NCBI RefSeq assembly: GCF_036850765.1
Contig: NC_089490.1
Coordinates: forward strand, 127,376,522 to 127,440,521
Source: Saccopteryx bilineata
Lineage: Eukaryota; Chordata; Mammalia; Chiroptera; Emballonuridae
Reading direction: 5' to 3'
Length of the DNA stretch: 64,000 nt
The stretch's first letter is position 1, and every line of letters begins with the position of its first letter. Made by a program: the position numbers and the translations under genes. The notes under the pieces are model-generated. The model ran no database searches, was not told the DNA's origin, and was given only the letters and a program-made list of their open reading frames with translations. Shown piece after piece: positions 516 to 57,808 of the stretch.

Positions 516-1020
516 TCTCCTCTTCTACTTAATTCTTTCTTTGTTCAACATCTTTTTTTTTCTCGTTTTTTTTCTCTTCTATCCTTTCGAGTCTCCTTTT
601 TAATTTGCCTCTTTCTTTGCTAGCATCTCACCTACTACCTAATCCTATACTCCTGTCTCAAGTGTATCCTAGTATGAAGTTGCCATCATCCTGAACCTTG
701 GGGTGAGCACTTGTTCTAGGCACTGAAGGGGGAAAAAGAAGGAGTCCACAGTGTACCTGGGAGATCAGAGAATATTTTGTCACTTGGAAGCATTTAAAAG
801 TATTCTGTACCGTTGAATATAGCAAATATGCACAGGAGGAGGGGAGATGGGCAGATCCTAAAATAATTCCGAAAGGATAATATAAAACTACTCCCATTTG
901 GCTTAGTTTGTAAACTGGTTAGAGGTGGCAGCAAATGGAAGAACCAGAAGTGGGGTGAAATCTAACTTGGGCCCTAGAACTACATTTCTTCTAGAGAGCT
1001 TAATAACAAAAACAGACACA
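516..1020. other. Intergenic stretch, CELA1 downstream flank
   Basis: No gene or clear repeat was recognised. The first ~90 bases are pyrimidine-rich. On the minus strand 1005-1020 is GT-rich (TGTGTCTGTTTTTGT) and is the likely downstream element for CELA1 cleavage and polyadenylation. Confidence 0.5.
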
Positions 1021-1041
1021 GGTTGATAATTTATATGCAGT

Positions 1042-1047
1042 TTTATT
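1042..1047 (-). promoter_or_regulatory. CELA1: CELA1 polyadenylation signal AATAAA
   Basis: AATAAA on the minus strand lies about 98 nt after the TGA and is followed within ~25-40 nt by a GT-rich tract. This gives a 3' UTR of about 115-125 nt; a short 3' UTR is usual for pancreatic proteases. Confidence 0.8.
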
Positions 1048-1144
1048 TGCTTTTCTGTGTCTGGTTCAAATAGTGTTGGTGGTCTCAAGGTTTACTGTGA
1101 ACTGAAGAATCATCTTGGGATAGCTGTTGTACTCCGGAAGATGT

Positions 1145-1162
1145 TCAGTTTCTGGCAATGAC
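1145..1162 (-). CDS. CELA1: CELA1 coding exon 8 (residues 262-266 and stop)
   Basis: Follows a TTTTCCTTCAG acceptor. Encodes VIARN then TGA (1147-1145), matching the conserved VIASN-type C-terminus of elastase I with Arg in place of Ser. The 3' UTR continues to about 1025. Confidence 0.92.
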   Translation of the reverse strand, partial: VIARN

Positions 1163-4100: not shown

Positions 4101-7100
4101 GAAAAATTAAGTAGCAATGTAAATATATATATAATTTTTTTAAATAGAGGTATAGGGGTAGAAACCAAAAGTCAGCTGCAAAAAGTTGAAAGTTTTCCCT
4201 TCTGGGAAGCAAGAACTCAAGGGGTAGAAGGAACACAATGACTATTCTTTTCTATTATTAAGCTTCATAGTTATACCTGCCCCTTTAAGTGATTTAATAC
4301 ATATAGCTTCCATAAAAAAATCAAAACTTGGCCCTGGTTGGTTGGCTCAGTGGTAGAGCGTTGGCCCGGCATATGGAAGTCCCAGGTTCCATTCCCGGCC
4401 AGGGCACACAGGAGAAGCGCCCATCTGCTTCTCCACCCTTCCACCTCTCCTTTCTTTCTATCTCTCTCTTCCCCTCCCGCTGCCAAGGCTCCATTGGAGC
4501 AGTTTGCCCGGGCACTGAGGATGGCTCTGTGGCCTCTGCCTCAGGCACTAGAATGGCTCTGATTGCAGCAGAGCAATGCCCCAAGATGGGCAGAGCATCG
4601 CCCCCTGGTGGGCATGCCGGGTGGATCCTGGTCAGTGCATGCGGGAGTCTGTCTGACTGCCTCCCCGTTTCCAACTTCGGAAAAATACAAAAAAAAAAAA
4701 AAAGAAAAAAGAAAAAAAAGAAAAACTTAAAAAACGAAAGTACTAGAGAAACAGACCAAAAGTTTAAATTGGGGATAATTCTTTTAAAAAGGAACTAGTT
4801 GTACCCCACCTGAACTACTGCTTAGGCAAAGATGTTTTCTTTAGCTTATTGTACTTGAAACATACAAAAAAAACCCAAACCTTTTCTACCCAAATTATAA
4901 CAATAGGAATTTGAGAGTATTTCTGGGCTATGGGTCAGGATGGTAATTTGAGTTGTGTGTAATACTATTGTCTTATGTTAATTGACCTGCAAAGAAACAA
5001 ATAGGCCCTGGAAAGATGGAGGGCATGGCTAAGGATTTTAGGACCCAAGGAAGAGATGGACAAGAGTTCAGTGGAGTACGGGATTGAGGTAAAAAGAATT
5101 CAATAAATTTATTCTCAGGTTAGGGTTGGGAACATACAGAGAAGTCTGAAAACCTAGAAGACTCAATGTTTGGAAGAGGCCAATGGGAAAGGACCTAGAG
5201 ACACAATTGTCTCAGAGAATTGTCAGTTGGAGTGGCAGCCAGAAGAGAAGTACTCTAGTTTCTTAGAAAACTAGACCATGGGAGAGAGTAGAAGGAAGTG
5301 AATTAATTCAGAAAGCTTAAACTTTAAGAGATTATAAATTAAACTGGCTGTTGAGGACCTGGAAGAGGTTGCCTTATGCCTTAGTTTCTTTTTTAGCCCC
5401 TCCTTGCATATAGGGTTCCCAGGATACAGGACTCTTAAGTTTTAACACTGGAAAAACCCTGGGAAAACCAGGATGATTTAGTCATATTATTTCCATAGTA
5501 CTAAGTGCTCACAGAAAACCTTTAAGCTTTTGCTTCTACTATTTCAGCCAGCCTACCAGCCTCCTGCTGGCTTTTCCTTTTACGCTTACTCTTAGCTTGG
5601 ACTTTGCATTTGATCTGCAATCCTGTCCTTTTGCTGAAGTAATTAAGGAAAACCTATTCCCGAGTTAATCCATTCTCTCTCTTTTTTATTATGTGAGAGG
5701 CATGGAGGCAGAGAGACAGACTTGTGCGTGTGCCCCAACCGGAATCCACCCGGCAAGCCCTTTACCGGGAGATGCTCTGCCCAGCTGGGGCCGCTGCTCT
5801 GTTGCTTGCCAACCAAGCTTTTTTTTTTTTTTAATTTTTTATTTAGTGCCTGAGGTGAGGCCATGGGACCATCCTCAGCGCCCAAGGCCAACTTGCTGAA
5901 AGCATTCTAGCCATTGCTGTGGGAGAAAGAGAGAGAGAATGGGAAGGTATAGAGAAGTAGATGGTCACCTCTCCTGTGTGCCCTGACCAGGAATCGAACC
6001 TGGGACTTCCATATGCCAGGCTGATGCTATACCGCTGAGCCAACTGACCAGGGAATCAATTTTCTACAACTGAGTCTTTGAGTAAAATGAATGGTTATTG
6101 TGTGGTCTTTAACCTTTTGGAGGCCAATCCTTCTCTCATTCATTTTAATTAGAGGCATATCTTTCTGTCATTCACTTTAATCCAGACCCATACAAGCCTT
6201 TCCACTTCATTTTCAGCATCCAGTCTGACTCCCACTTCATGAATAAACAGAAGCTATAATGCAGAACACCTGCCAACTTCCATCTACTCAGCATGCACAC
6301 GCTTTCACGTTTATGCACATTTTGGCATTCTTCTCCCTGTTCAGAGCCAGCTCCAGCTCTGCTCTTGGTTTCATCTTTTCTGTCTCCTCTGGGATCTTGT
6401 GCCATCCATTTATTCTTCTCTTTGATTCTGTAGGATGCTTTCCTCTCTATTTAACATACTCAATTTTCTTTCCTCTTAAAAAATGCACTCTCTTCTTGGC
6501 TTGTCATTGCTCTTAGAGTGACCAGACTTTTTTTGCTTCTCTCTCTCACCCAAGATTCTTTGAAGAGTACATTTCCTTGGTATGTTTCTTATTGCCTCTT
6601 CTTCCTTACCCTTTAGACTCTGCCATCACCACTCCACTGGAATTGTTCTTGCCAGTGACTCATCTGCTAAGTAGTCTCTTTCAGGTATCTACTGTGGCTC
6701 CTGGCTGCACTGTCTACTATGTGATGACCTATCAGTATTTTCTGAGATTTTATAAAACCCTTATTTTTCTCTTGCCTCTGATCCCTCTTAGAGCTTTTTG
6801 GGTTTGTTGTCTTTCACCTATCTTCCTGAACCATTCAAGTATTTATACTATCACAGTTCTTCTAACTCACTGCTCTTTTCTTTTTTTTTTTTTTTTAGCA
6901 GTTTTGGGGTCTCATTTGCTTTATCTCTAGCCCAGTTCGCTCCCCTAGGTTCCACTTTATTTTTTTAAGACCTTATTTATTTATTTTAGAGAGAAGAGAG
7001 AGAGAAAGGGGGGAGGGATGAGAAGCATCAACTCCTATATCTCCCTGACAGGGCAAGCCCAGGGTTTTAAACTGGCAACCTCAGCATTCCAGGTTGGCAC

Positions 7101-10100
7101 TTTATCCATTATGCCACCACAGGTCAGGCCTCCATTTTCTTTGTATCTGACTTCTTACTAGTTAACTATACCTGAATATCCCAAACTCATCACCTTTTCT
7201 CCCAAATCCTATAAATCTGGTCTCATTTAAGGAAGCAAACCCCTCTCCCAAATCACTTAAACCAAATGCCTGTAATTCATTCCATAGTCTCTTTCTTCCC
7301 TCTTCTCCACTGCCCTAATTCAGGCCCTCAGATTTCTTGCCTAGATAATTACAATAGTCTTCTAACCACTCTTCCTGCCAGCCTTGCCCTCTTCAAAAAC
7401 ATGATTATCTTGTCATCCGAGAGTGCTTCTAAAAGGCCAATCTGGTCATGCTGTTCTCCTGTTTAAAACTCTTCCATAATTTCTCAATATCTAAGTGATA
7501 AAGTTCATGTCCCCAGGCATGGTATTGGAAGCCCTGTCACATGGTTCCTAGTGTCATCTCCTGACATTCCCTAGCCTGCGCTAGTTTATATTATAACCCA
7601 AAGGGGTCAGCAAACTATTCTGTAAAGGGCCAAATATTAAATATCTTAGGCTTTGCAGGCCATACAGTCTCTGTTGCAACTACTTAATTCTGGGAAAACA
7701 GCCATAAACTGTATGTAATAAACAACTATGGCCGTATTCCAATAAAATATTTTTATGACATTGGAATTTCATATATTTCACGTGTCATGGCATATTATTC
7801 TTTTATTTTTTTCCCAACCATTTAAAAAATGTAAAAACTATTCTTAGCTTATAAGCCAAACAAAAACAGGCAGCATGACCTGGCTGGGTAGCTCAATTGG
7901 TTAGAATGTTGTTCCAATATGCCAAGGTTGCAGGTTTGATCCCTGGTCAGGGTACATAAAAGAATCAACCAGTGAATGTATAAGTGGGAGGAACAACAAA
8001 TCTATGTTTCTCTCTTTTTCTCTCTTAAATTAATATATAAAAAAATAAAAGCAAAAAAAGGCAGCAGGCTGGGCTTGGAGGCTTGTGGGCTTTGACCTTT
8101 GCTCTACCTGCTGTAGGGAACACCCATAATTCTCTATGTGTCCAACCTAGGTTCTTGGCCCATGCCTTTCTCCATGCTGTTTCTTCTCTCCAAATATCTT
8201 TCCTTCCTTCTTTAACCTTCGGGACTCACTACAGTCTCCACTTTTTCAGGGAAAGCAAGTCTTTTCTGACCCCAACAGAGAGTGAGGTAAGTACCTATTT
8301 TTTGAACTACTATATCACCTGATGCTTATTTTTATTATAACACTTAACCATATTGTACTTTAATGTTCTTTCATATGTCTGCTCTTCCCATTCCTCCACA
8401 GTGTTTGACTTAGCTTTGTATCCCTAGAATTTAGCACAGTGTCTGGCATTTTATTTAGTAGATAATCAAGAACATTTGTTGAACTGCAGTAAGAAATATG
8501 TAAGATGATCATTGCTGATTGAGCTTGTTTAAATAGAAGGTTCATATATATATTTTACTATTATAAAACCATTTTCTGCACTTTCCCCTACTATATTCAC
8601 CTGTATATACCACTGTAAATACTAGTGGAGTTAAAGGGTGATAGTAGAGGAGCTACAAAAATAATTGGGTTAATGGGAGGGGAGTTACCTTATGCAAAAT
8701 TAAAAGCATCACTCCAGGCTCAGCCCCACGACATCCATAAAAAAGTCTAGGTTACAAAAAAATTCTAAAGTACACACATATGCACCAACACAGATTTTGG
8801 GCCACATATAAACTTTTGAGGTGAGGCCAGTAGGCAAGATATATTTTTAGGTTCCTTTCAACTTTAATATCCTATGAGCACAAAAGTTACTAACACAGAA
8901 TCACTCTCATTCTCATTCATGAAACCAGAAACCAGAGTAGAAAGTTGAGTATGTACATGGGGTATAAGCAGGTGTGGAACAGGGGGTGAGGAAAAGATGA
9001 AGAGTAGTAGGCAGAGAGGGGAGGAACCTGGAGTGAGACTTCTGACATTTCCTACATGTGTTCACCTGGCATCCAGAACGAGCTCCATCTCCTCCAGCAC
9101 ACACCATGGTGTTCTTCACAGTGGAGCCCCAGTAGGAGGAGCTAGAACAGGTGGCATAGTCCACAGTGGGCAGGTAAGCCTGCTGCAGGGTCTGGGCCAG
9201 CTGCCCATTGGCTGAACAGAATACACAGCATTGGAGATCAGCCCCATATACTGTCCAAGAAAAAAACCTTCCACACCCTCCCAAACATTCCCAGGCTGCG
9301 ATGAAAGCTGAACTAAGGGCAAGCTCGCTCTCTTTGCTCATTGCATGTCCTACATCCTCCTCTTTTCTCTCTTTATATGGAATTTGCAGACCCCTTCCTT
9401 CAGGGAGTCATCTTTGATTACTGTTTCCAAGCTCCAAACAACCAATCTGACTCCTACTTTATTTATTTGTATTTCATGGGTACCTTGGCTAAGTAACTGG
9501 AATTATTTGTTGTTGCTTATCTGCCTGTACTACTTTCTTCATACACTGTAAACCCCATGAAACAGAACTGGGACTGTGCACCCTTGTTTTTATTTCTTAA
9601 GAGTTGGTGCAGCTTTTGTCTGGCTCTATGACTTTTCACAGCCTTTGCACATGAATTATTTCTATGGATCTTTACAACCCTTCGTGTTAAAGATCATGAA
9701 ATGAACCATAATGACATTAAATGAACTGAGAGTAGAGCTGAGTTAGAAGTATATGTCTCAGCTCTAGGTTCTTAGTAGACTGGCTGCTCATAACAAGGCC
9801 TTGCCTCTCTTCCAGAGCTCAGATACTGCCTGGTGGCTGACAGACTTCTATGTTAGGCTTAATGTCTCTGCCCTTCTAAATTATCTCTGCTCACAGAAAG
9901 CTCTACCCCCTTTCCATGCTATTGGAATGACATTCCCTACCAGAAATCTTCCCATGATGACAAGAAGAGGGCTGAGGCCTCCTGTACCTTAATTTCTTTG
10001 GACCTTATATAGCTAACCCTGGTTCATTCACTCCAACCCAAAGCCCAGCAACTGTCTATGGAGGTAGCACAATGGTATAATGACCACCAAAGTGGGAGCC

Positions 10101-13100
10101 AGGATACCTGGATTCTGGCCCTAGCTAAACAGTTACTAACTACTTGTGATCTTGTACAAGGTCTTTAATTTCTTTGGGCCTCAGTTTACTCATGTATAAA
10201 ATGAGAGGCTGATACATAACACTCTCTGAGGTAGGTTGTTTTTTGTTTGTTTTAGAGTCTATGAATCTCTGCCTCGATTTCATAGTCTGTTCTTAGCTTG
10301 ATTTCATGTCTCAGGTATTTTTTTCTCTTGTTTCCTTTGCTTTCTGGCCTCTGGCTATGAACACCTGAGACCACTGAAAACTGTACCCCAGAAGTTCAAC
10401 TAATCAAGGTCCATGTGGTAGATGGTGCCTATGTAGGTGACTTACTTCTGGTCCTGCCCCAGCCTGTAATGTAGCAGGGACTGTTGTTAGCCAGGATGGT
10501 TCCCTCCCTCGGCAGAACACCCAGCTGGACGTAGCTGTTGAGGGTAACGCTCTGGGCTAGGCGCAGCAAGGCAATGTCATAGCTGTGGGAGGAAAACAGA
10601 TAACTCATTCATGTCAGCCCTTTCTTCAGGTCAGCATATGGGCAGGCCCTCACTAAGCCTTCACGTCCCCAAAGAACTGGAAACCAAAGATTTTGAATTT
10701 GCTAATTCTCAAACTTGAGGCGTTATACATTTGGATTGTTAGGACATTATATATTTAACAGTAGCGATGGTGGATGAGGTCTTGATGTTGTAATCTTTCT
10801 TTGACCCCTTCAATCCAGGAGAGTGGAGCTGATATCTTTCGGTTGTAAGTGGGGAATCAGGAGGATCAGGGTGGTATGATGATGGTAATAGAGAAGAGTT
10901 CTCAAGGAAGAAAAATGTAAAAAATCTGTGTAGTTCTGAAAGTTTTGAAGAAATATCCCAATTACTTGAACCAGTCTCAACCCCCACATTTTATTGACTT
11001 GACCACCATTTTAACAACTTCTTAAAGTAATTTAGAAAAAACCTTTTTTGGAGGAGTTTTCACATGTAAGATTCATTTTAAGAAATTTACTTTTGCTGAT
11101 GGAGTCTGTTCCATAAAATGAATAATAAATAACAACAACAAAATAACCCCAGAAACATTAAACTGCAGAAAAGGAGCTTCAGGTGATCCAGTTCAATAAG
11201 GCAAACCAGCCTAGATCAAATAAATAAATAAATTTTAAAAATTCTCAAGCTCTCCAAAGTCTAAATTCTCAAAGTCGTCCTGGATGCATGTGTAGGAAGC
11301 CTTAACCCTGTTGCTAGCTAGTCAATCCTCCACCTCTGAGCCCAAGGCTAGCCCAGCTTTGCCCTTACCCAGCAGCCACATTATTGCTGTTCCAGTATGG
11401 ATGCACCACGATCTTCTGCACACCCACATACTGCTCGGTACCATCATTCTGGCTCAGATTGTGGTCTCCAACCACCACACGGAACCTCATTTGGCTGGAG
11501 TGAGAGAAGGAAGCCCTGAGTGAACCACAGTGCTCAAACCTCTTTCCCCCTTAGAGAAAAGTTGGGAAGCCATCTTATGCTTTGTCTTTAGGACAGGAAC
11601 CCATCTTATTTGGCCCAGGCAGAGGAAGGATAAAAAACATTGGATGATAAGAAAGTAACAAGATCTCTCATTTCCTAATTCACTAACTTGTGGGAGTGAC
11701 CAAACTACCATCACAAATTATTGAAATAAACATCATAAACTGAATCTCTCATAACCTGAGAGGGGTGTGGTGAGCATAAATAAAATAATGGCTCTTGGCT
11801 TACAGAGGGATTTTGAAGGAAGTGTAAATATGTAGACCAGTAATTCTTAAAGCATGGTCCCTAGACTAGCAGAATCAGCATAACCTGGAAACTTGTTACA
11901 AATACAGATTAGCAGGCCTTAGCTTGGGCCTACTAAATAAAAAAACTGCTGAGTGGGGCCCAGCAATCTGTGCCTTCCAGGTGATTCTGATACATGCTCA
12001 AATAAGAACCATTGCTCCATATGAAAAAGTTGTTACCAGCTAGGCATTGAGCAGGGATTTAAATACCTTTACCTTCTTAACCCTCACAATAACTCTACAA
12101 AGTAGATATTATTATTCCACTTTTAGAGATAAGAGAATGAGGATTTAGAGAAGTTAAGTAAGTTGTCTAAGGTCACATAGCTGGAAGATGGAGGAATGGG
12201 ATTTTAACCTGAGCTGACCTGATACCAAAATTTGTACTTTTTACTATATTCTACTACCTCCCCAGAGGCCCATTAAAGTCCTGCCCTGAGTGGTCAAAGA
12301 TACAAATTTCTCCAGAAGGGCCAGACTCTTCCCCTCCCAGGGGCTCAGAAAAGCTAGTCTTTGTTTTTCTCACTTGTCCACACAGTGAGCAGCTGTCATC
12401 ACCCAGTTCTGTCTGATGAGGGTCCCTCCGCAGGTGTGATACCAGTTACCTCCAGACTGGTACTGGAGGGAAATCTAGATGGGGAAGAAGAAAGGAAGAA
12501 TAGGTGGTGTTTCTTAAAAGGATTTTTCTAAACTACATTACCCCCTTAAATTCCTGCCATCCCTTGAAACATTCTTCAACTTTCTGGGCTAGAGATGGCA
12601 AATAGGTTTCATTTGACCTGTCAGTTGCTATTGATTGGTTGGTAGTGGCTACCTGGAGTGGTGGTTAGAAAGGGTGTATAGATGATCTGGGATCAGCAGG
12701 AAAGAGTGCTCCATTGTTTGGTGATTTTGCTGTGTACATGGATGGGTAGGGGAAGGTAAAAGCATACAGACTGTATGGGCATCTGTGTTAGGCTTGCTCA
12801 CTGGTTTACCAGATGCAAGCCCTTTGCTTGATTAGTGCGTGAGCACACAGCAACACTTCATGGGTATGGCCTATGTAAGGCTATGGGTGCTTGCGCTCAG
12901 GAGGATTGCAGATGCGCAGATTGTGTGCCCACCACTGTGAGGGGCCATTTTGCTGTTTGTTTTCCTGAGAGGCAGTTTTCCCTGCCTGTGTGCTTGTCCA
13001 CCGTTGTGAGATTTTAATAAATGGAATGGCCCAACCCTTTCTGGCTCCACAGTTTTTCTCCCTTCTGCCCAAATCCAATGTGGACCTGCCTGGCCTTGGC

Positions 13101-14676
13101 CACCAGCATTACAGCACCCTACTCTGGGTTGCTGCAAAAAGCCAAGTACCCAGGTCCTTTCACCTCCTTTCCTCTTGGGAGGTAATGTAGCTATGGGTTT
13201 GCTTCATCACCTAAGACCCACAAGCTTAGATTTCAGAACTTCCTCTCCAATGTTTTCAAGATACACCCTATCCTCTTACTTTAGGGAATATTTAGAAATA
13301 CCATTGGAGTGTTCATTTTTATCAGTTCATGTCTTCTCCTTCAGCACCTCATATTATGCAATAGTTTTACTACTGAAAATTGGGGCTCAAATTTTTGTAA
13401 CTTGAATTTAATTCTAATTACAGTGATTCCTCTCAATTTGCCAGTTTTACAGATTTATAATTGCTTCAATCAGAGCCTGTCCTGTCCTGTTATGAAAGTA
13501 GAAACTCTTTAAATAGCCAAATAAGCAACATGCTCTACTTGGGGGCAGGAGTGCACTTGCATGTGTGACACATACTATTGGAGGTGTGTGTGTGTGAATA
13601 TGGGTCGAGGTATGTGTAGTCTGAAGTGTGAGTCTTGCACAGTCTTGTTAATGTAGCACAAGCGGTGTTGCTGGGAGTATAAATGTGATTTGTATTTAGG
13701 TGTGTGCCTGGGAGAGTGTGGTTGGTGTTTAAATTCCTTCCTTCAAGTTTTTTACATTTAGAAAACCCAGGTAAGCCTAGTCCCATTTATCTTTAAATCT
13801 AGATCCCAGACAGTTGGAGTTTCCTGTTGTAAGGACATACACAAACACATGTAATACTGTGTATCAGTGCCTAGGAAACTCCTATGTTATTGGAAATCTG
13901 AGGCCTGAAGAAACACCCACCTGAGAGGGCCAGGAATTCCTCCGGGCCTCAGTCCCTCCAACTACCCGGGCGTTGGTTTCCGGAAAATCCTGGGTGCTGT
14001 GTCCTTTGTGGGGCAGAAGAAAGTGAGTGATGACTAAGCATGGGGTCAGCCCAGGGTGGAGGTGGGGGTAGCAGTTGTGCTTTGTCTGCAAATTCAGTTC
14101 CTCCCTAGCAAATGAGGGCCCCAGCTGTGAGTCCTTGGAGCCTCTTTTGAAAGCAAGAGTCTGAGTGCCTTCTGCTTTCCTTGGCTGTCCTCAGAACTCT
14201 GGCATGCTATGAAGGACCTATCTCAAATCACCAGGGTAGGGCCTCAGAGGTTGTATATGGTCTCATTCTTGCTCAGGGTCATCCTGGGCCTGAGGAGATG
14301 ACCCCCCACCCCAAGCTTTGGCAGGATTCTCTGGGGGTCAGAGACAGCAGAGCACATCCCAGCCAGGCACCGGCTGAGGATGTCTTCCTGTCCGTGGGGG
14401 TGGTAGGGAAGCCCAGGACCCTGGAAGAGGTTTCCCTCAGCTTCATGAGGGGCCTGCATGGGGAGTGGCTCTGACCCTTCCAATCGTGGGCTCCAGGGGA
14501 TTCAAGTTGTCGCTGAACTCACAGGCAGAGTGTCCCACTCACCTGGAGTAGAGAGCATGCCTGGGCTTATGGATAGCTTTCTGACCCTCCTGCTAAAATT
14601 CCCCTCCCTAGAATTCAGGCCACTTGACCCACTTACCATAAAGGACCAGCGTGGCGAAGACCAGGAAGCTCAGCAT
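1145..14676 (-). CDS. CELA1: Chymotrypsin-like elastase family member 1 (elastase I), complete 8-exon gene
   Basis: Secreted S1-family serine protease zymogen of pancreatic acinar cells that cleaves after small aliphatic residues. Coding segments (minus strand, 5' to 3'): 14676-14637, 14003-13921, 12474-12374, 11494-11369, 10582-10446, 9211-9066, 2061-1912, 1162-1145. They total 801 nt and give 266 aa plus TGA, the length of pig elastase-1 precursor. The hydrophobic signal peptide is about residues 1-16. The activation peptide ends at Arg26, before VVGG at 27. The triad is His71 (TAAHC), Asp119 (YDIALL) and Ser214 (GDSGGP). All seven introns are GT-AG and phases join without error. A TATA box and a PTF1-like element precede the gene, suggesting acinar expression is retained, whereas the human gene is reported silent in pancreas. 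No lesion was seen. Neighbour GALNT6 is same-strand but far upstream. Confidence 0.97.
1163..1911 (-). other. CELA1: CELA1 intron 7 (749 bp)
   Basis: Bounded by GTGAGT and CAG. No repeat or gene was recognised inside. Confidence 0.9.
1912..2061 (-). CDS. CELA1: CELA1 coding exon 7 (residues 212-261), catalytic serine exon
   Basis: Starts after TTCTCTGCAG with GDSGGP, containing nucleophile Ser214. Continues through GVTSFVSS (the S1 pocket wall, with Val at the elastase-type position) and ends AYISWMNS before GTGAGT. 150 nt, phase 0 at both ends. Confidence 0.97.
2571..2960 (+). mobile_element. Long tRNA-derived SINE (family A, RHIN-like)
   Basis: Defines family A for this window: a tRNA-like head with A box (GGCTCAGTGGTAGAG) and B box (GGTTCAATTCC), an acceptor-like stem GCCCTGG/CCAGGNC, then a ~300 bp body (TGGAGCAAAG..., CCCCCTGGTGGGC) and an A-rich tail. 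A 13 bp target duplication, ctaaactgaggtg, is present at 2558-2570 and 2961-2973. Mobilised by L1. Confidence 0.93.
4330..4720 (+). mobile_element. Family A SINE
   Basis: Full-length copy with a long A/GA-rich tail. The likely short target duplication is (a)aaaactt on both sides (about 4322-4329 and 4721-4728). Confidence 0.9.
5680..6053 (-). mobile_element. Diverged family A SINE
   Basis: Minus-oriented, clearly older than the other copies. The tRNA-like head is at 5985-6053, and the body carries an internal poly(T) expansion at 5820-5835. Confidence 0.85.
6965..7130 (-). mobile_element. Short Ves-like SINE (family C)
   Basis: Minus-oriented short SINE: GA-rich segment, GAGAAGCATCAACTC, then a tRNA-like head ending ...CCACAGGTCAGG. 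Ves-type SINEs are widespread in bats; the subfamily is not assigned. Confidence 0.85.
7604..7874 (-). mobile_element. hAT-Charlie-type DNA transposon fossil
   Basis: Contains the recognisable AAACTATTCTGTAAAGGGCC and TTTGCAGGCCATACAGTCTC blocks. It is the reverse-oriented relative of the element at 42427-42610. Non-autonomous, no ORF. Confidence 0.7.
7876..8060 (+). mobile_element. Short Ves-like SINE (family C)
   Basis: Head GACCTGGCTGGGTAGCTCAA, B-box-like GGTTTGATCCC, then AGAATCAACCAGTGAATG, a CT-rich tract and an A-rich tail. Confidence 0.85.
9066..9211 (-). CDS. CELA1: CELA1 coding exon 6 (residues 163-211)
   Basis: Acceptor TTCTGTTCAG. Completes Thr163, then [14 protein letters not shown]..., [20 protein letters not shown] and GARSGCQ just before the catalytic-serine exon; donor GTGAAC. 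146 nt. Cysteines of the S1 disulfide loops are conserved. Confidence 0.96.
9212..10445 (-). other. CELA1: CELA1 intron 5 (1234 bp) with a MIR fossil
   Basis: Mostly unique sequence. About 10064-10240 (plus) resembles a MIR SINE: tRNA-derived GTAGCACAATGG..., then CTTTGGGCCTCAGTTTACTC and ATAAAATGAGAGGCTGAT. No exon signal was seen. Confidence 0.75.
10446..10582 (-). CDS. CELA1: CELA1 coding exon 5 (residues 117-163), catalytic aspartate exon
   Basis: After CTCCCACAG, completes Gly117 then [14 protein letters not shown] with Asp119 of the triad. Continues through [14 protein letters not shown]. Donor GTAAGT. 137 nt, phase 2 in and phase 1 out. Confidence 0.97.
10583..11368 (-). other. CELA1: CELA1 intron 4 (786 bp)
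   Basis: GTAAGG...CAG. AT-rich, with AAATAAATAAAT at 11218-11233. No mobile element was recognised. Confidence 0.85.
11369..11494 (-). CDS. CELA1: CELA1 coding exon 4 (residues 75-117)
   Basis: After CTCACTCCAG, completes Asn75 (AA|C), then [34 protein letters not shown] and NNVAAG. Donor GTAAGG. It encodes the calcium-binding-loop region of elastase. The 75-78 loop (NQMR) differs from the human YQKT I recall. Confidence 0.96.
11495..12373 (-). other. CELA1: CELA1 intron 3 (879 bp) with MER5A and MIR fossils
   Basis: About 11843-12022 has the MER5A hallmark blocks (CAGCATAACCTGGAAACTTG, GGGGCCCAGCAATCTGTG, GGTGATTCTGATACATGCTC). About 12030-12265 looks like a MIR (CTAAGGTCACATAGCTGG and flanks). 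Neither carries coding capacity. Confidence 0.75.
12374..12474 (-). CDS. CELA1: CELA1 coding exon 3 (residues 42-75), catalytic histidine exon
   Basis: After [29 protein letters not shown], then [12 protein letters not shown] with His71 in the TAAHC motif. Ends AA before GTGAGA. 101 nt. Confidence 0.97.
12475..13920 (-). other. CELA1: CELA1 intron 2 (1446 bp)
   Basis: Contains a putative solo LTR (12784-13113). The rest, including TG/CA-rich sequence at ~13555-13720, shows no gene. Confidence 0.85.
12784..13113 (+). mobile_element. Putative solo LTR of an endogenous retrovirus
   Basis: A ~330 bp unit begins TGTGTTAGG and ends CATTACA, so it has TGT...ACA termini. AATAAA (13016-13021) lies ~95 bp before the end, as in an R/U5 arrangement. 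Flanks are GCATC (12779-12783) and GCACC (13114-13118), a plausible 5 bp duplication with one mismatch. No internal retroviral genes are present. The family is not identified. Confidence 0.6.
13921..14003 (-). CDS. CELA1: CELA1 coding exon 2 (residues 14-41), activation site
   Basis: After CCCCACAAAG: completes Gly14, then [21 protein letters not shown] and NSWPSQ; donor GTGGGT. Trypsin cleavage after Arg26 would free Val27, whose amino group activates the enzyme. 83 nt. Confidence 0.97.
14004..14636 (-). other. CELA1: CELA1 intron 1 (633 bp)
   Basis: GTAAGT...AAAG. GC-richer than the other introns; no repeat was recognised. Confidence 0.9.
14637..14676 (-). CDS. CELA1: CELA1 coding exon 1 (residues 1-14), signal peptide
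   Basis: ATG at 14676-14674, then [12 protein letters not shown], a hydrophobic secretion signal. Ends with the first base of Gly14 before GTAAGT. It is the first ATG downstream of the TATA box and aligns with pig and rodent elastase I starts. Confidence 0.95.
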
Positions 14677-18541: not shown

Positions 18542-19014
18542 GTATTTGCTTCTTTTTTTTAGATTTCTAAAAAATTTTATTTATCATTTTAATTTGTATT
18601 TACATAGATTCAAGTGTCCCACCAAATATATCTCCCTCCATCCCCTTATTCCCCTCGGCCCCCCATGCCCCCTCTCTCCAATGTCTTTCCCCCATCCCTC
18701 CAGGATTTGCTGTCCTATTCTCTATAATACTGTGTTATGATATACTAGAAAGCCCGGTGGTCATACGAAATGACCGCTGCTCTAGATATTATAAATTGTA
18801 ATTAAAATGATTTGTGCAAAGGTGTCGCTAATTCAAACTGAATTACCCAGGGCAGGCGGCGAGGACGCCCCTTTGCTTACTGCCCCACGGGGTTTCCCCC
18901 TTCTACTTGCTTAATTGCTTAAAGTAGAGTGCAATGAAGGAAACCACTGGTGGTACATTTCTTAAGAGCCACCGCTAGCTCAATAAATAAAGGTGATTTA
19001 AATAATAAAATGTT

Positions 19015-19417
19015 GGCCCTGGCCGGTTGGCTCAGTGGTAGAGTGTCGGCCTGGCGTGCGGAAGTCCCGGATTTGATTCCTGGCCAGGGCACAAAGGAGA
19101 GGCGCCCATCTGCTTCTCCACCCCTCCCCCTCTCCTTCCTCTCTGTCTCTCTCTTCCCCTCCTGCAGCAAGGCTCCATTGGAGCAAAGATGGCCCGGGCG
19201 CTGGGGATGGCTCCTTGGCCTCTGTCCCAGGCGCTAGAGTGGCTCTGGTCGTGACAGAGCAATGCCTCGGAGGGGTAGAGCATCGCCCCCTGGTGGGCAG
19301 AGCGTCGCCCCTGGTGGGCATGCCGGGTGGATCCTGGTCGGGTGCATGCGGGAGTCTGTCTGACTGTCTCTCCCCATTTCTAGCTTCAGAAAAATACAAA
19401 AAAATAATAATAACAAT
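19015..19417 (+). mobile_element. Family A SINE inside the Helitron
   Basis: Target duplication aataataaaatgtt at 19001-19014 and 19418-19431. The body carries the duplicated GGGCAGAGC(A/G)TCGCCCC module. It post-dates the Helitron. Confidence 0.95.
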
Positions 19418-19434
19418 AATAATAAAATGTTAAT

Positions 19435-19955
19435 TCACATGTCAAAGATCTCTTTGTACACAACATTTCTTGTGTAGATCTTCCCATCATTTTTAAGCTC
19501 GCCTTGCAGAGGACCATCAATTATTTTTAATTTTATGTCCGTTCTTTCACGAACTCTTGAACAGGCAACATAAAGTTGACCGTGTCCAAATGCAGGCTCA
19601 GGTAAAAAAATGCCAACACGCTTAAGCGTTTGGCCCTGAGACTTATTGATGGTCATAGCAAAGGCAAGTCTTACGGGAAATTGTCTATGTCTCAATTGAA
19701 ACGCAACCCTGTTTGAGATGGAGCCAAACCAATTCTTGAAATGACATATATTTCACCTTTAGAGGAGCCAGTCAAAGACTTAGCTATTATGACATTATTT
19801 TTCAATTGAAGAACCTCTAGTCTTGTACCATTGCAAAGACCCCTTCTGGTGTTAAGATTTCTTAACAGCATAATAATTGCTCCAATCTTTAACCTCAATT
19901 TGTGAGGTGGCATGCCAGAAGGCAGGACTATTTGAATGCCGTGGCAACTTCACCC
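19435..19955 (-). pseudogene. C-terminal fragment of Helitron Rep/Hel (PIF1-like helicase)
   Basis: Two overlapping frames form one helicase C-terminus. The upstream part (to ~19696) has GIQIVLPSGMPPHKLRLK, IGAIIMLLRNLNTRRGLCNG and ISRIGLAPS. After a one-base frameshift near 19695-19700 it continues RQFPVRLAFAMTINKSQGQT (SF1 helicase motif V region) and GHGQLYVACSRVR (motif VI with the conserved arginine), ending KEIFDM stop at 19435. The HUH Rep endonuclease and helicase motifs I-IV are absent, removed by the internal deletion that joins the 5' terminus to this segment near 19950. Non-functional. Confidence 0.92.
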
Positions 19956-20782
19956 CATTGGCTAGTACAGTTATGCAAGCAACCAATAAGCTATCGGTGA
20001 CAAACAGACACTTAAGCCGCATATAGTAAAGATAATTTCATTAATCTCTTTCCCTTCTCTGATCCCATCTTCTCTTCTACTTTCCCTCTGACCACTTTCT
20101 CTCTGGTCCCTTTGATACCACCTCTGCCTCTGTTCTGTTGCTTAGTTCACATTGTTCATTGGATTCCTCAAATGAGTGAGGTCATATGGTATTTTTCTTT
20201 CTCTGCCTGGCTTATTTCACTTAACATAATAGTTTCCAGGTTCATCCATGTTCTTGCAAAAGCTAAGGTTTCCTTCTTCCTCACAGCCACGTAGTATTCC
20301 ATTGTGTATATGTACCACTGCTTTTTAATCCACTTGTCCACTGATGGACACTTGGGCTGTTTCCAGATCATGGCTATTGTAAACAATGCTGCAATAAACA
20401 TGGGGGTTTATTTCTTCTTTTGAATCAGTGATTTGGTATCATAGGATATACTCCTAAAAGTGGAATAGCTGGGTCAAAGGGCAGTTCCATTTTCAATTTT
20501 TTGAGGAATCTCCATACTGTTCTCTACAATGGCTGCACCAGTCTGCATTCCCACCAGCAGTGTAGGAGGGTTCCTTTTTCTCTGCACCCTCTCCAGCACC
20601 TGTTATGTGTTGTTTTGTTAGTAAGCGCCATTCTGGCAGGTGTGAGGTAGTATCTCATTGTGGTTTTAATTTTCATTTCTCTATGGTTAGTGATGTTGAA
20701 CATTTTTTTATATGCCTATTGGCCATCTGTATGTCCTCTTTGGAGAAGTGTCTATTCATTTCTTTTGCCCATTTTTTGATTG

Positions 20783-20878
20783 GATTGTTTCTTTTCCTGG
20801 TATTGAGTTTTACAAGTTCTTTATAAATTGGATTGTTTCTTTTCCTGGTATTGAGTTTTACAAGTTCTTTATAAATTT
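20783..20878. repeat. In-frame 48 bp tandem duplication in L1 ORF2
   Basis: Unit 20783-20830 (gattgtttctttt...ttataaattg) is repeated at 20831-20878 with one terminal difference. On the minus strand it duplicates 16 residues ([16 protein letters not shown]) in the C-terminal part of ORF2p. Confidence 0.95.
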
Positions 20879-23800
20879 TGGTTATTAACCCTTTATCAGA
20901 CATATTGTTGCATATATTCTCCCATTGTGTGGGTTGTCTTTTTATTTTGTTCATGTTGTCTTTAGCTGTGCAAAAGCTTTTTAGTTTCATGTAGTCCCAT
21001 TTGTTCATCCTGTACTTTATTTCACTTGCCTGTGGAGATAAATCAGCAAAAATATTGCAATGAGAGATACTGGAGAGTTTACTGCCTATGTTTTCTTCCA
21101 AGATAGTTATGGTTTCACAACTTACATTTAAGTCTTTTATCCATTTTGAGTTTACTTTTGTGAATGGTGTAAGTTGATGATCCAGTTTCATTTTTTTGCA
21201 AGTATCTCCCCAATTTTCCCAACACCATTTGTTAAAGAGACTGTCCTTACTTTATTTATTGTATGCTCTTACCTCCTTTGTCAAATATCAATTGTCCATA
21301 TAGGTGTGGGTTTATTTCTGGGTTCTCTGTTCTGTTCCATTGATCTGTATGCCTGTTCTTATGCCAGTAACAAGCTATTTTGAGTATGATGGCCTTGTAG
21401 TATAACTTGATATCAGGAAGTGTGATACCCCCCACTTTATTCTTCTTTTTCAGGATTGCTGAGGCTATTTGTGTTCTTTTTTGGTTCCATGTAATTTTTG
21501 GAATATTTGTTCTATATCTTTGAAGTATGTCATTGATATTTTAATAGGAACTGCATTGAATTTATAGATTGCTTTGGGTAATATAGACATTTCAATGATA
21601 TTTATTTTTCCTACCCATGAACATGGTATATGCTTCCATTTGTTTGTATCTTCCTTGATTTCCTTTAACAATGTTTTATAATTTTCCGAGTACAAGTCTT
21701 TAACCTCTTTGGTTAAATTTACTCCTAGGTACTTTATTTTTTTTTGTTGCAATAGTGAAGAGGATTGTTTTCTTAATTTTTCTTTCAGACAGTTCATTGT
21801 TGGTGTATTAAAAAAACACTGATTTCTGAATATTAATTTTATATCCTGCCATCTTGCTGAATTCATTTATCAGGTTCAGTAGTTTTTTGACTGAGACTTT
21901 AGGGTTTTCTATGTACAGTATCATGTCATCAGCAAATAATGCTAGTTTTACTTCTTTTCCAATTTGGATGCCTTTTATTTCTTCTTCTTGTCTTATTGCT
22001 GTGGCCAGGACTTCCAGAACTATGTTGAATAAGAGTGGTGAAAGGGGGCACCCCTGTCTTATTCCTGATCTTAAGGGGATTGCTTTTAATTTTTGCCCAT
22101 TGAGTATGATGTTGACTGTGGGTTTGTCATAGATGGCCTTTATAATTTTGAGGTAAGTTCCCTGTATGCCCACTTTGCTGAGAGTTTGATCATGAATGGG
22201 TGCTGGATTTTATCAAATGCTTTTTCTGCATCTATTGATATTATCATGTGATTTTTATACTTTCTTTTATGTGTTGAATCACATTGATTGATTTGCAGAT
22301 ATTGTACTAGCCTTGTCTCCCTAGAATAAATCCCACCTGATCATGATGTATGATTTGTTTCATGTATTGCTGGATCCGGTTTGCTAATATTTTGTTGAGA
22401 ATTTTAGCATCTAAGTTCATCAGGGATACTGGTCTATAGTTTTCTTTCTTTGTAGTGTCTTTGCCTGGTTTTGGAATTGGTATTACGCTTGACTCATAAA
22501 AGGAGTTTGGAAGTCTTCCCTCTTCTTGAATGTTTTGAAATAGCTTGTGAAGGACAGGAGTAAGTTCTCTGAATATTTGATAGCATTCGCCTGTGAAGCC
22601 ATCTGGCCCAGGACTTTTGTTTGTTGAGAGTTTTTGATAACTGTTTCAATCTCATTTGATTAAATCGGTCTGTTTAGGTTTTCTGATTCTTCTATATTGA
22701 TTTTTGAAAGATTATATGTTTTGAGGAATTTGTCCATTTCACCTAGGTTTTCTAATTTTATAGCATACAGTTCTTCATAGTATTTTCTTAAAATCCTTTA
22801 TATTTCTGCTGTGTCAGTTCTCTCATTTCTAATTTTATTTGAGTCCTCTCTTTTCCTTAGTGAGTCTGGTTAAAGGTTCATCAATTTTGTTTACCTTTTC
22901 AAAGAACCAGCTCTTGGTTTCATTGATCCTCTGTATTGTTTTTTAGCCTCTGTGTCATTTATTTTTGCTCTGATCTTTATTATTTCCTTCCTTCTACTTC
23001 CTCTGGGTTTTACTTGCTGTTCTTTTTCTAGATTTTTAGATGCAGGGTTAAATTGTTTGAGCTTTTTCTAGCTTAAGGTATGCCTGTAGTTATGAATTTC
23101 CCTCTCAGGACTGCTCTTGCTGTGTCCCAAAAATTTTGAGTTGTTGTATGTTTGTTTATATACATTTGTTTCAAGGAAATTTTTTATTTCTTCCTTGATC
23201 TCATTGTTAACCCATTCGTTATTTAATAACATACTATTTAGTTTTCAAGTGTTTGAGTGTTTTTCAGTTTTTCTATTGTAGTTGATTTCTAGTTTCATGC
23301 CATTGTGATCAGAGAAAATGCTTGATATGATTTCAATCTTCTTAAATTTGTTGAGACTTGTTTTGAGTCCTAGCATGTGGTCTATCCTAGAGAATGTACC
23401 ATGAGCACTTGAAAAGAACGTATATTCTGCTGCTTTAGGGTGAAAGCTTGTGAAGATGTCTATTAAATCCAGTTGATCTTGTGTGTCCTTTATGTCTTCT
23501 GTTTCTTTGTTAGTTTTCTTTCTTGAGGATCGATCTGTCCAGTGGTGTTAGTGGGGTATTAAAATCCCCTATTATAGTATTGCTGTTGATTCACCCTTTA
23601 TGCCCATCAAAATCTGCTTTATGTATTTAGGTGCTCCTATATTAGGAGCATAGATATTTATAATGGTTATATCTCCCTATTGGATTGATCCCTTTATCAT
23701 TATGTAGTGACCTTGTTTATCCCTTACTGTAGCCTTTGTTTTAAAGTCTATTTCGTCAAATATAAGTGTTGCTACCCCAGCTTTTTTTTTTTTCATTTCT

Positions 23801-24712
23801 ATTTGCATGAAATATTTTTTCCATCCCTTTACTTTCAGTCTATGTGTGTCTTTTGTTTTGAGGTGTGTCTCTTGTAGACAGCATATGTATGGGTCCTGTT
23901 TTCTTATCCACGCAGCCACCCTATGTCTTTTGATTGGAGCATTTAGTCCATTCACATTTAAGGTTATTATTGATATGTAGTTTTTATTGCTATTTTATTC
24001 TTTAAATCTACATTCCTGTTTTACTAGATTTCTTCCCCACTTTGTTCTGTTTACAGCAGGCCCCTTAACATTTCTTGTAGCATTGGTTTGTTTGTAATGA
24101 AGTCCTAATTTATTTATTTTTTTGTCTGGGAAAGTTTTTATTTCTCCTTCACTTTTAAGTGATAGCCTTACTGGATAATGAAGTCTTGGTTGTAGGCACT
24201 TGTTTTGCATTACTCTGAATATTTCCTGCCATTCCCTTCTGGCCTCTAATGTTTTGGTTGAGAAGTCAGATGTCATCCTTATGGGGGGTCCTCTGTAAGT
24301 AATAAACTGCTTTTCTCTTACAGCTTTTAGTATTTTTTCTTTATCTCTTAATTTTTGTATTTTAATTATGTGTCTTGGGTTGGCCTTTTTGGGTTCATCA
24401 TTAATGGAACTCTCTGTGCTTCTTGATATTGTGTGACTTTTTCCTTCATCAATTTAGGGAAGTTTTCAGCTATGATTTCTTCAGTCAGCTTCTCTAGCCA
24501 TTGTTCTTTCTCTTTTCCTTCAGGAACCTCTATGATGCGGATGTTATTTCTCTTCATGTTATCACAGAGCTCTCTTAGAGTTTCCTCAGACTTTTTGAAC
24601 CTCTTCTTTTTGCTGCTCTGCTTCCGTGCTTTTGTTTATCTTGTCCCCTAACTTGCTGATTCGATCCTCAGCTTCATCCAGCCTGCTTTTAATTCCTTCC
24701 AGTGTGGTCTTT

Positions 24713-34624: not shown

Positions 34625-37600
34625 CTGAAAGATGACATAGCAAAGGGTCAACCTGGGCCTTGGTCCTGTAACAGTGCTACCGAGGGCAGTAAGTAGCACT
34701 GTTTTAGGTCCGGCATCGTGCCAGACATTCTGATGGGATGCATTCCTGAATTTCCACCTGGGTCTGGTGCCAATTACTCACCCCTAGCTTTAGTCTGAAT
34801 GGCTGGAATAGAGCAGGGACCTTGGGCTAACTGAAAAATGCTTTCAGGGCCTGCCTCCGCCAGATGGTCATTCTGAATGACCTGGGCCACTGCTGCCTAC
34901 TTCCTCTTTCTCTGCCTCGGATCATAGACTCCTCCCTTCCCTATTACCCCAAAGTAGGGCTTCACTTTCCCTACGCCAGGGACTGGGGATTGAGGTAGAG
35001 TAGGGTGTGGAGGCCACTGGGGGTGCTACTTTAGGCTCAGTACCGGAGGAGTTACATTGTAAATCTTGAGACAGTGTGATATAAAAGGAAGAATCCGTGC
35101 TTTCAAGGCAGACTTATCTGGGTCTGCATCTCAGGTCCACCACTTAACAGTGATGGGTCTTGGGCCAGTCACAAGCTTGCTGAGCTTCCATTGGCTCATC
35201 TATAGAAATAGGAACACCACCTACTTGGGAAGAGCCTCTGAATATTAGCCATAGTTTCGTGCCTGGCACAGGCAGGCACCATGAGTGACTCTTCACTTTC
35301 ATCTACTTAGGTTCAGTCTAAAAATACTTGAGTCATGACATAGCCGGCCACTGACCATAACCTCTGATCTTATCTTCACATCAGCCAGAACCAGTCATCA
35401 CCAAACATGACTCAAGCCCTGGAAACCTCGCCTGTAATCAAGCCCACGCTCCATACTTTCTACATTGTCCTGATCCATTCCATAGTATCTCAGGCATAAG
35501 ATGCAGAAAATATGGAGGGGGGCAGGGGTAACCTCAGGTTCTTGATACTGAGCTTTCTGGGATTACTTACCTGGGTCAATTCCCATTCCTCATCCTTGGG
35601 CACTTGGGTGTTTTTGCCAGTGAAGTGACAGCTCCTAAGGCCCAGAGTGCCAGCTCTAGCATGTAGACACAGCTGCTTTGCAACATTGTGGCGAAGGTCC
35701 CTCTGGGTTGTGTATTCAAAGTACTAGAAGTCAAGACAAGAGGTCTGAGGGACAGGTAGAGAGTTTGCCCACCACCTTCCAAAGCCATCTACCTTAAGAT
35801 ACCAGCCACACGTGGTCTCCTGGTGAGGCAAGTGAGCAGGTGACAAGATCTGGTAATTCACGTGTCACCTTCAGGATTTTAAAAACCTTATATGGTTTAT
35901 AGTGGGATTATATTTACCTAATTTTTAAATTTAATTAACACTTTAATTTAGCTTTGTTTTAAGCATTATCTGAGAAGTCATGTGTTTGATACACTAGTCT
36001 TTGTTGTTTTTGCTAATAGATTTCTAGTAAAATAAAGAGGTTCACCAACGTACCACCTAAAATCATTGTGCAGGTGAGTGGTACAGGGAATTGCTTAAGA
36101 ATGACTTTGTCTTCATATACACATGCTGGCAGCCTACTTAGTGTCCCAAGCCACTCCTGTCCTTGTTCCAGTTATGGTTCAAGTGCTTCTTCCTTACGAA
36201 ATGCTGGCCATTTAGGGAAGGTTGAGGGGCTGAGGTCAGGGAGGTTACCAGCTGCTCCTCAGAGAAAGCTGCAGCACTGTAAAGCACGGAGTTAATTTCC
36301 AGGATGCCAGGTGACTGAGATGTCAGGAGGTGTTTGTTTTGTGATCATATTTTGGTGGATAAGAATGGTATGATCTGGGCAGAGGAAACACTGAAGATGA
36401 ACTTGCATGTACAGCAGGGAAAGTGCCCAGAAATTTCCCATACTTACCCTAAAGCATCACTCAGCAGCTGGCAACCTCCAGCAAGCCGCCTCTGCTGAGC
36501 AGCCCCACCCTCCAGCCCTCTCTAGCACCCAGCTAACTGATGCCCAGTGCTCTCTGGATGTCCCTAATTCAGACTTCAGATCTTGTCTGTCTGTGTCAAG
36601 CGTTCTTCCTCAGATGGGAGCTTTCTGAGGGCAGGGATTCTATTTCTTCCTTTCTGGATTTTCCCCATCCTAGTCCTTAGAAAAGGACTAAATGGAGCAG
36701 AGAAAGGGGACTCATTAAGAGAGAGGAGGTGCCCAAAGACAAGGCTTCTCTTGGGCCTGCCCCAGTAGTGCTGGGCTGTATACCTGGTTGCCGCCAAGGC
36801 CGTGGCAGGCATACATGATGAGGGGCTTCCCTCCACGGTTGTTCTCACCCACGTCCAGGCACTGGCCGATGCCGAGGTTCTTTATCTGCAGAATGGTGAG
36901 GAGACAGGGGAAGCAGGACAGCACAGTCAGGAGTTTGTTAGTTCGTGGTGTTGGGCCCAACTGGAATAAGTTTGCATGGCTGAGTTTCTCTGATTTTTTC
37001 CCTCTGTTCATTAACCCAGATGCCTGGAATTAATAGCAAAGTGAGAGGTGCAGAGCCCACAGACTGGCTAGGGCAGGCTGGGCAAGCTCGCAAGTTGCCA
37101 GGTCCCTGGGAGAAAGCAGTCAGCACATGGGGATTTCTTTACCAGTGATGGCTCTCATAGTATGATTCCCCCAGACCATCAGCATCACCTAGGAATTGGT
37201 TAGAAATACAAATTTTCAGCATTTCTGACTTCAACCCAGTCCTATGGAATCAGCAGTCTGTGTTTTAACGCTCCTTCCTAATGATTCTGATGCAGGTAAG
37301 TGTTTGAGAACCACTCCTTATGAGTTTTTTTTCCTCTTACAATGAGTTTTTTCCCTCTTACAATGATTTTTAGCTATATCTAGAAGCCCCAAAGTCTTCC
37401 CTCTGGACAGAGAAGTGTGGAGAGTAAAATTCAGTTCTCATTTGCCATCTCTCTGCGGGGTAAGTGATCCTGAACTTCTCTAGGGGATTCTGTGATGATG
37501 GCAAAATAGTTCTCAAGACTCACAGCTCCGTAGAAGGTGGGCTTCAGGTCAGGAACAAACATCTCTGGGTAGATGTTGTGCAGGAACCAGGAAAAGTTAT

Positions 37601-41777: not shown

Positions 41778-41828
<51 letters not shown>

Positions 41829-55231: not shown

Positions 55232-55333
55232 CCTCTAGAACCAATGGGGACCCTGGCTTAGTCACTGCAGCCGCAGAGCCTGACCCTGGAAATAGCTTGA
55301 TGTGTCCTGGTGGCCTCACCCTGGGACCTCAGC
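55232..55333 (-). other. GALNT6: Inferred 5' UTR part of the GALNT6 start-codon exon
   Basis: A strong acceptor (TTTTTCTCCTTTCTCAG) ends at 55334 on the minus strand, so the exon would run 55333-54741 with 102 nt of 5' UTR and be joined to an upstream noncoding exon. No such exon or promoter was recognised from 55.3 to 64 kb. Confidence 0.6.
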
Positions 55334-57673: not shown

Positions 57674-57808
57674 AATGGTATCAATTATTTCTATTATTAT
57701 AATTAGTAAATCCCTGCTCAGCTTTCCAACAATTTTCCTCAAGTATCTAGTCCTTGGTCAAAGCCACACTCATTACCCCGTGGCATGTCTTGCTTAAAAG
57801 TAACTTCA

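What the first reader, a model, noticed from the sequence alone, without database searches (positions are those of the whole stretch)
18745..20032. Helitron with diagnostic ends and a readable empty site, in a genome whose SINEs look rhinolophoid
Seen: TC 5' end, CTAG 3' end, hairpin exactly 10 nt before CTAG, A/T insertion context, no target duplication, and uninterrupted L1 3' UTR when the flanks are joined. Known: in mammals, Helitrons are described as abundant in vesper bats (Helibat). Inference: if the host is a horseshoe or leaf-nosed bat, as the family A SINEs suggest, this is a Helitron outside the classic host group, so an independent or wider invasion. The order L1, then Helitron, then SINE gives relative ages.
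Basis: partly seen in the sequence, partly recalled or inferred. Interest (0 to 1): 0.75.

Follow-up and report, generated by a model that had tools for sequence, protein, structure and literature searches.

The report
Young Helitron family in sac-winged bat
A short rolling-circle jumping gene sits inside a LINE in a bat chromosome; it belongs to a family of over a thousand mostly young copies in what looks like a sac-winged bat, outside the only mammal family in which such elements were reported to have spread recently.

Summary
The Helitron is real and exact: window 18745-20032, read on the minus strand (TC at 20032, CTAG at 18745), inserted between A and T with no target duplication. In the host genome all 40 scored matches to the joined flanks (of 1,827 candidates) span the junction, and the 3' terminal 26-mer occurs 1,130 times at up to 2 mismatches (reversed control 0). 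It is an internal-deletion derivative (nt 1-95 + 4129-4907) of a broken 4,907-bp parent whose Rep-helicase is 54% identical to Helibat's Helraiser. Twelve full copies average 1.0% non-CpG divergence, about 4-5 My at recalled rates. A SINE hit this copy later.

The inference built on it survives: a recent Helitron expansion outside vesper bats, distinct from Helibat (recalled Helibat end: 0 matches). A second Helitron family is present. A 2026 paper still calls vespertilionids the sole mammals invaded by rolling-circle transposons (passage). Horizontal transfer is inferred, not shown.

The parts
18745..20032 (-). Non-autonomous Helitron copy, 871 nt without the SINE insertion (majority length of 12 copies 873); internal-deletion derivative of a 4,907-bp parent
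   Evidence: TC...CTAG ends; empty site in 40 scored matches; 1,130 3' ends in the genome; parent L029
20031..20032 (-). 5' terminus TC, preceded by A
   Evidence: sequence; 5' flank A in 11 of the 14 copies whose 5' motif was recognised, of 24 sampled
19938..20032 (-). left terminal sequence, corresponds to parent nt 1-95
18745..19936 (-). right part, corresponds to parent nt 4129-4907 (interrupted by the SINE): helicase C-terminus, 3' untranslated part, right terminal sequence
19695..19949 (-). helicase remnant A (Pif1 2B domain), frame 2
   Evidence: Pfam PF21530 E 3.9e-19; Helraiser 7lcc residues 1332-1409, E 1.2e-25
19438..19752 (-). helicase remnant B up to its stop codon, frame 1 (frameshifted relative to A)
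   Evidence: Helraiser 7lcc residues 1407-1495, E 2.1e-29; 63% identical
18759..18775 (-). 3' subterminal hairpin, 6-bp stem, 5-nt loop
18745..18748 (-). 3' terminus CTAG, followed by T
   Evidence: T follows in 24 of 24 sampled copies
19015..19417 (+). younger SINE inserted into the Helitron (other window copies of this repeat hold tRNA-like parts)
   Evidence: 14-bp target duplication 19001-19014 / 19418-19431; many Helitron copies elsewhere are SINE-free
18549..24600 (-). host L1 (label recalled; limits approximate); the Helitron lies in its 3' end region, same orientation

Best explanation
This is one copy of a young non-autonomous Helitron family in an emballonurid bat very close to Saccopteryx leptura (most likely S. 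bilineata; the species name is inference). A Helitron lineage distinct from Helibat entered or expanded in this host. Its Rep-helicase (HUH nuclease with two tyrosines plus SF1/Pif1 helicase) peeled off one strand starting at TC and stopped at the hairpin-CTAG end; the circle then integrated between A and T without target duplication (mechanism as established for Helraiser; inferred here from the ends). Internal deletions of the parent made short derivatives that the enzyme could still move in trans. One of these, joining nt 1-95 to 4129-4907, amplified, and one copy landed in an L1 3' end here. A SINE later inserted into it. The parent copy examined is broken and this copy encodes only a frameshifted helicase tail, so it is not autonomous. 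Shown: ends, empty site, number of ends, parent, divergence. Inferred: strand mechanics, age in years, horizontal entry.
For: Ends and frame; empty site in 40 scored matches of 1,827 candidates (six aligned); 1,130 3' ends, control 0; T after CTAG in 24 of 24 sampled copies; parent L029 4,907 bp with A|TC...CTAG|T, PF14214 E 4.5e-58 and PIF1 E 5.8e-24, HUH and both tyrosines at Helraiser Y727/Y731 kept, 54% identity (416 of 767 aligned residues); deletion junction; other derivatives of the same parent with other breakpoints; 1.0% mean non-CpG K2P in 12 copies; Rep domain over the cut-off in the 150 scored places of 291 candidates, 0 of 14 control genomes; host chromosome sizes against S. leptura; no match to the recalled Helibat end.
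Against: No tool names the species; the host rests on contig sizes and on a weakly supported CELA1 tree (bats 85/83, nearest Myotis at 87/76). The Helibat end is recalled and had no positive control. No sister genome could be searched, so horizontal transfer against vertical persistence is open. The 24 sampled copies are exact matches to the window's 3' end, which may favour young copies. In 3 of 14 copies with a recognised 5' end the base before TC is not A. The parent's Walker A motif is altered, so that copy is not an active source; no intact one was looked for.
Confidence: 0.88

Rival explanations
1. The host is a vesper bat and this is an ordinary member of its known Helitron load (Helibat or another described family).
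For: The CELA1 tree puts the window nearest to Myotis among 26 mammals (support 87/76, not starred).
Against: Zero matches to the recalled Helibat 3' end at up to 2 mismatches in 2.6 Gb (no positive control); 54-63% amino-acid identity to Helraiser; contigs C8-C12 of 99.5, 96.9, 82.7, 81.4 and 59.3 Mb against 98.2, 96.2, 82.8, 81.0 and 58.1 Mb in Saccopteryx leptura, and 2.61 against 2.58 Gb.
Confidence: 0.04
2. Vertical persistence: the lineage was in an emballonurid (or older) ancestor and simply stayed active, without recent horizontal transfer.
For: No sister genome was searched; amplification age does not equal entry age. P0001, an unnamed ENA protein, looks like a more diverged relative that shares even the non-coding 3' part, so related copies exist in some other record.
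Against: Papers seen in passages report recent rolling-circle activity in vespertilionids only; elsewhere in bats only Helitron1Nb_Mam and 3Na_Mam at about 30% divergence are described. None of these covers emballonurids as far as seen.
Confidence: 0.3
3. The SINE travelled inside the Helitron (one SINE-bearing master copy), so the order Helitron then SINE would be wrong for this locus.
For: Five other copies with different flanks (L002-L006) carry a SINE at the same site. Helitron-borne SINEs are slightly nearer to each other (mean 8.2%) than to the 16 other window SINEs (9.8%).
Against: These SINEs differ by 4.5-10.3% non-CpG while the Helitron 5' parts differ by 1.1-3.7% (the 3' parts differ by 1-4% among L001-L004 but by 6-13% in pairs with L005 or L006); each is nearest to a free SINE of the window; these copies were picked by a query that contains the SINE. 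In the sample of 24, two copies have a SINE at other sites inside (L051, L053).
Confidence: 0.07
4. Chance ends on an ancient mammalian Helitron fossil.
For: Old Helitron1Nb_Mam and Helitron3Na_Mam copies exist in bats.
Against: 1.1% non-CpG divergence of this copy, exact empty site, 1,130 shared ends.
Confidence: 0.01

Closest known systems
Helibat1 / Helraiser (Myotis lucifugus; structure 7lcc)
   Same: TC/CTAG ends, A-T insertion, 3' hairpin close to CTAG (PMC4778049, passages), RepHel with HUH and two tyrosines, Pif1-type helicase; non-autonomous derivatives
   Different: 54% amino-acid identity over 767 aa, 63% in the window's C-terminal piece; different ends (recalled Helibat end absent); different bat family; on the helicase tree it groups with P0001 (99/91), not with Helraiser
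Helitron1Nb_Mam and Helitron3Na_Mam (ancient mammalian Helitrons, PMC4971623, passages)
   Same: Helitrons in bat genomes
   Different: about 30% diverged and shared by the four bats compared there; here about 1%
P0001, unnamed ENA protein (1,848-bp contig)
   Same: same family by protein and by the frame-shifted, non-coding 3' tail
   Different: 71% identical to the window remnant; source organism unknown, possibly another bat

Membership tests
Helitron (superfamily) | 5' TC and 3' CTRR ends | tested here: met
   TC...CTAG here and in the parent L029
Helitron (superfamily) | insertion between A and T, no target duplication | tested here: met
   this copy; 3' T in 24 of 24 sampled, 5' A in 11 of 14 recognised; L002 is an exception with an 11-nt repeat and a clipped 5' end
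Helitron (superfamily) | hairpin shortly before the 3' end | tested here: met
   6-bp stem 10 nt before CTAG
Helitron (superfamily) | autonomous partner encodes HUH Rep with two tyrosines plus SF1 helicase | tested here: met
   L029; that copy's frame is broken and its Walker A altered
Helitron (superfamily) | rolling-circle / circle intermediate | not testable with these tools
   one direct CTAG|TC head-to-tail junction seen in L047, compatible but not proof
Helibat family | Helibat-type 3' end | tested here: not met
   0 matches to the recalled end in G000
Helibat family | close protein identity to Helibat1 | tested here: not met
   54-63%
Autonomous Helitron | own full-length RepHel | tested here: not met
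   only helicase C-terminal pieces, frameshifted

The most novel reading that the evidence does not exclude
Emballonurid bats were invaded, by horizontal transfer and within about the last 12 My, by at least two different Helitron lineages, independently of the Helibat invasion of vesper bats; the claim that vesper bats are the only mammals invaded by rolling-circle transposons is then wrong.
Probability: 0.65. Interest if true: 0.8.

Novelty: new member of a known kind. Interest (0 to 1): 0.72.

Why it matters
Helitrons are said to have colonised only one mammal family in recent times. A second, young and distinct expansion in another bat family gives a replicate for asking why bats take up such elements, how they arrive, and whether they capture genes, with low-divergence copies, empty sites and a sequenced sister species to test it.

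Tried and rejected
Host from a SINE-derived protein (14 candidates, none scored) and from SINE words in papers (0 papers): led nowhere. The CELA1 search did not name the host; 26 of its 120 listed hits went into the tree, the other 94 (mostly non-mammals and near-duplicates) were left out. In viral contigs the 3' end pattern had 0 matches, the helicase piece had 21 pattern stretches but no relative, the parent's protein no stretch. 272 bases of the 3' part against phages: none. A vesper host, an old fossil and a hitch-hiking SINE were considered and rejected (see rivals).

Papers not held: look-ups for Paulat 2023, Osmanski 2023, Thomas 2010 and 2014 failed (identifiers recalled); so a report of emballonurid Helitrons there cannot be excluded.

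Genome-wide count of 5' ends and the search with the Helraiser C-terminal piece did not complete.

Full report
WHAT IS THERE. Reading the minus strand of window 18745-20032 gives an element that begins TC and ends CTAG, with A before and T after. A 6-bp hairpin ends 10 nt before CTAG. By itself the hairpin is weak evidence: 0.9% of random draws have one as good there, 4 of 74 CTAGT sites in the window (this one included) do, and the fold has z = -2.3. The inside of the element is decisive: two overlapping, frameshifted pieces (19695-19949 and 19438-19752) match residues 1332-1409 and 1407-1495 of the 1,496-residue Helraiser chain with E 1e-25 and 2e-29. No other copy of the Helitron part was found in the 64-kb window.

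EMPTY SITE. The joined 120-nt flanks were searched in the genome that holds the window. All 40 scored matches, of 1,827 candidates, span the junction at 94-97% identity. In the six that I aligned the junction itself is exact; there is one 1-nt length difference in the neighbouring TA run. So there is no target duplication. That the flanking repeat is an L1 is recalled.

A FAMILY, NOT A SINGLETON. The 3' terminal 26-mer occurs 1,130 times at up to 2 mismatches, against 0 for the reversed control. I fetched 24 of the exact matches listed there (19, 5). T follows CTAG in 24 of 24; a 5' motif was recognised in 14, preceded by A in 11, T in 2 and G in 1. The G is in L047, where one copy's CTAG directly abuts the next copy's TC. 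Eleven of the first 19, and one (L052) of the other five, match the window element end to end without a SINE; the rest are shorter matches, other deletion derivatives or interrupted copies.

PARENT. The best Rep-domain match in the genome lies in a 4,907-bp element (L029:1481-6387, minus strand; C1:289733280-289738186) with the same kind of ends and A/T flanks. It has PF14214 and PIF1 domains, keeps the HUH motif and the tyrosines that align with Helraiser Y727 and Y731, and is identical to Helraiser at 416 of 767 aligned residues, 54%. Its reading frame is broken by stops and shifts and its Walker A motif is altered. The window element corresponds to nt 1-95 plus nt 4129-4907 of this parent. 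Other copies join other points, for example 507 to 4647, 520 to 4686 and 1891 to 4690 (L030, L039, L010). These are internal-deletion derivatives, as expected for Helitrons moved in trans.

AGE. Eleven SINE-free copies plus the window copy were compared with their own majority: mean non-CpG K2P 1.0%, range 0.1-1.7%, window copy 1.1%; the parent's corresponding parts 1.5%. With recalled bat rates of 2.0-2.7e-9 per site and year this is about 4-5 My. The copies were chosen by an exact 3' end, so the sample may be young-biased.

THE SINE. Its 14-bp target duplication shows that it landed in the Helitron. Five other copies (L002-L006), retrieved by a query that contained the SINE, also carry a SINE at this site. 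These SINEs differ from each other by 4.5-10.3% (non-CpG) while the Helitron 5' parts differ by 1.1-3.7%. The 3' parts differ by 1-4% among L001-L004 but by 6-13% in pairs with L005 or L006, whose 3' parts align less well. Each SINE is nearest to some free SINE of the window, although on average the Helitron-borne ones are slightly nearer to each other (8.2%) than to the 16 other window SINEs (9.8%). They are best read as separate insertions at a favoured site. So the order L1, Helitron, SINE holds, with some doubt left.

HOST. The genome has 2,612,309,609 bases; contigs C1-C13 measure 408.4, 394.9, 317.9, 300.1, 266.3, 211.2, 114.2, 99.5, 96.9, 82.7, 81.4, 59.3 and 146.8 Mb, together 2.580 Gb, then C14 drops to 5.8 Mb; later contigs were not measured. 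Saccopteryx leptura has 2.58 Gb in 14 chromosomes of 392.7, 386.3, 372.6, 224.8, 221.1, 196.7, 121.8, 98.2, 96.2, 82.8, 81.0, 58.1, 57.4 and X 138.9 Mb (PMC13047367, part 1 of 3 of the text). Five small autosomes agree within about 2%, the putative X (C13) within 6%, and the host has one pair fewer; the large chromosomes differ, as fusions or translocations would make them. Rhynchonycteris naso has 2.455 Gb and 2n = 22 (PMC11375410, passages). S. bilineata with 2n = 26 fits (karyotype recalled). A CELA1 tree puts the window among bats with 85/83 support, nearest to a partial Myotis sequence, so it does not itself settle the family. The recalled Helibat end has no match in the genome (no positive control was run). 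I conclude an emballonurid, not a rhinolophoid and not a vespertilionid.

RELATION TO HELIBAT. The window's helicase piece is 63% identical to Helraiser, which ranks 15th of 121 compared. In a tree of 42 rows (top 40 of the 120 listed, plus the window and Helraiser) it groups with P0001 at 99/91, and Helraiser falls in another supported group. P0001 shares even the non-coding 3' tail read in another frame, so a relative of this family exists in some unnamed ENA record.

A SECOND FAMILY. The 150 scored Rep matches (of 291 candidates) pass the Pfam cut-off, with 0 of 14 control genomes. Of the 20 fetched, 2 are of the window's lineage and 18 of another; those 18 average 2.5% non-CpG divergence in the Rep part, about 9-12 My at the same recalled rates, again from the best-scoring copies. 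Two of them share about 2.1 kb whose ends are not TC/CTAG.

LITERATURE. PMC13003292 (2026; passages) states that vespertilionids are the sole mammalian lineage invaded by rolling-circle transposons; PMC4778049 (passages) says that the only Helitrons found in sequenced mammals were from vespertilionids, and PMC5664122 (passages) and PMC8075899 (passages) are in line with this. PMC10724287 gives a leaf-nosed bat relative (Aselliscus) 0.05% rolling-circle sequence in its table and 0.13% in its text (passages), without families. Of the held papers only PMC5664122 contains both Helitron and emballonurid. Key surveys (Paulat 2023, Osmanski 2023) are not held, so novelty is likely but not proven.

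VERDICT. A confirmed, structurally ordinary Helitron whose interest lies in its host and age: a young, high-copy family outside vesper bats. Horizontal transfer is likely but untested here.

Noticed in passing
G000, loci L011-L028: A second, different Helitron lineage with many Rep-domain copies, 18 of them averaging 2.5% divergence; two copies share about 2.1 kb with ends that are not TC/CTAG.
   Followed up: partly
L047, 1029-1030: Direct CTAG|TC junction between two copies of the family, like the head-to-tail joints described for Helraiser circles.
   Followed up: no
L002: A copy lying at almost the same spot of another L1 3' end, but with the first 7 nt missing and TATATACATAA repeated on both sides, unlike a canonical Helitron insertion.
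   Followed up: partly
window 19001-19014 and L002-L006: Six Helitron copies at different places carry a SINE at nearly the same internal site: probably a favoured target for the L1 machinery.
   Followed up: partly
window, e.g. 61382-61788, 57281-57688, 51227-51624: 17 copies of a roughly 400-bp SINE compared in 64 kb; in this emballonurid-like genome it cannot be taken as a rhinolophoid marker.
   Followed up: partly
window 1831-13970 and 36700-55234, minus strand: Exons of CELA1 and GALNT6 (recognised from recall; CELA1 supported); the Helitron lies between the two sets of exons found.
   Followed up: partly
window 20779-20877: Tandem duplication with a 48-bp period (100% match) inside the L1 ORF2 remnant.
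   Followed up: no
P0001: Unnamed ENA protein that encodes a frameshifted relative of this very Helitron, including its non-coding tail; its source organism would be informative.
   Followed up: partly
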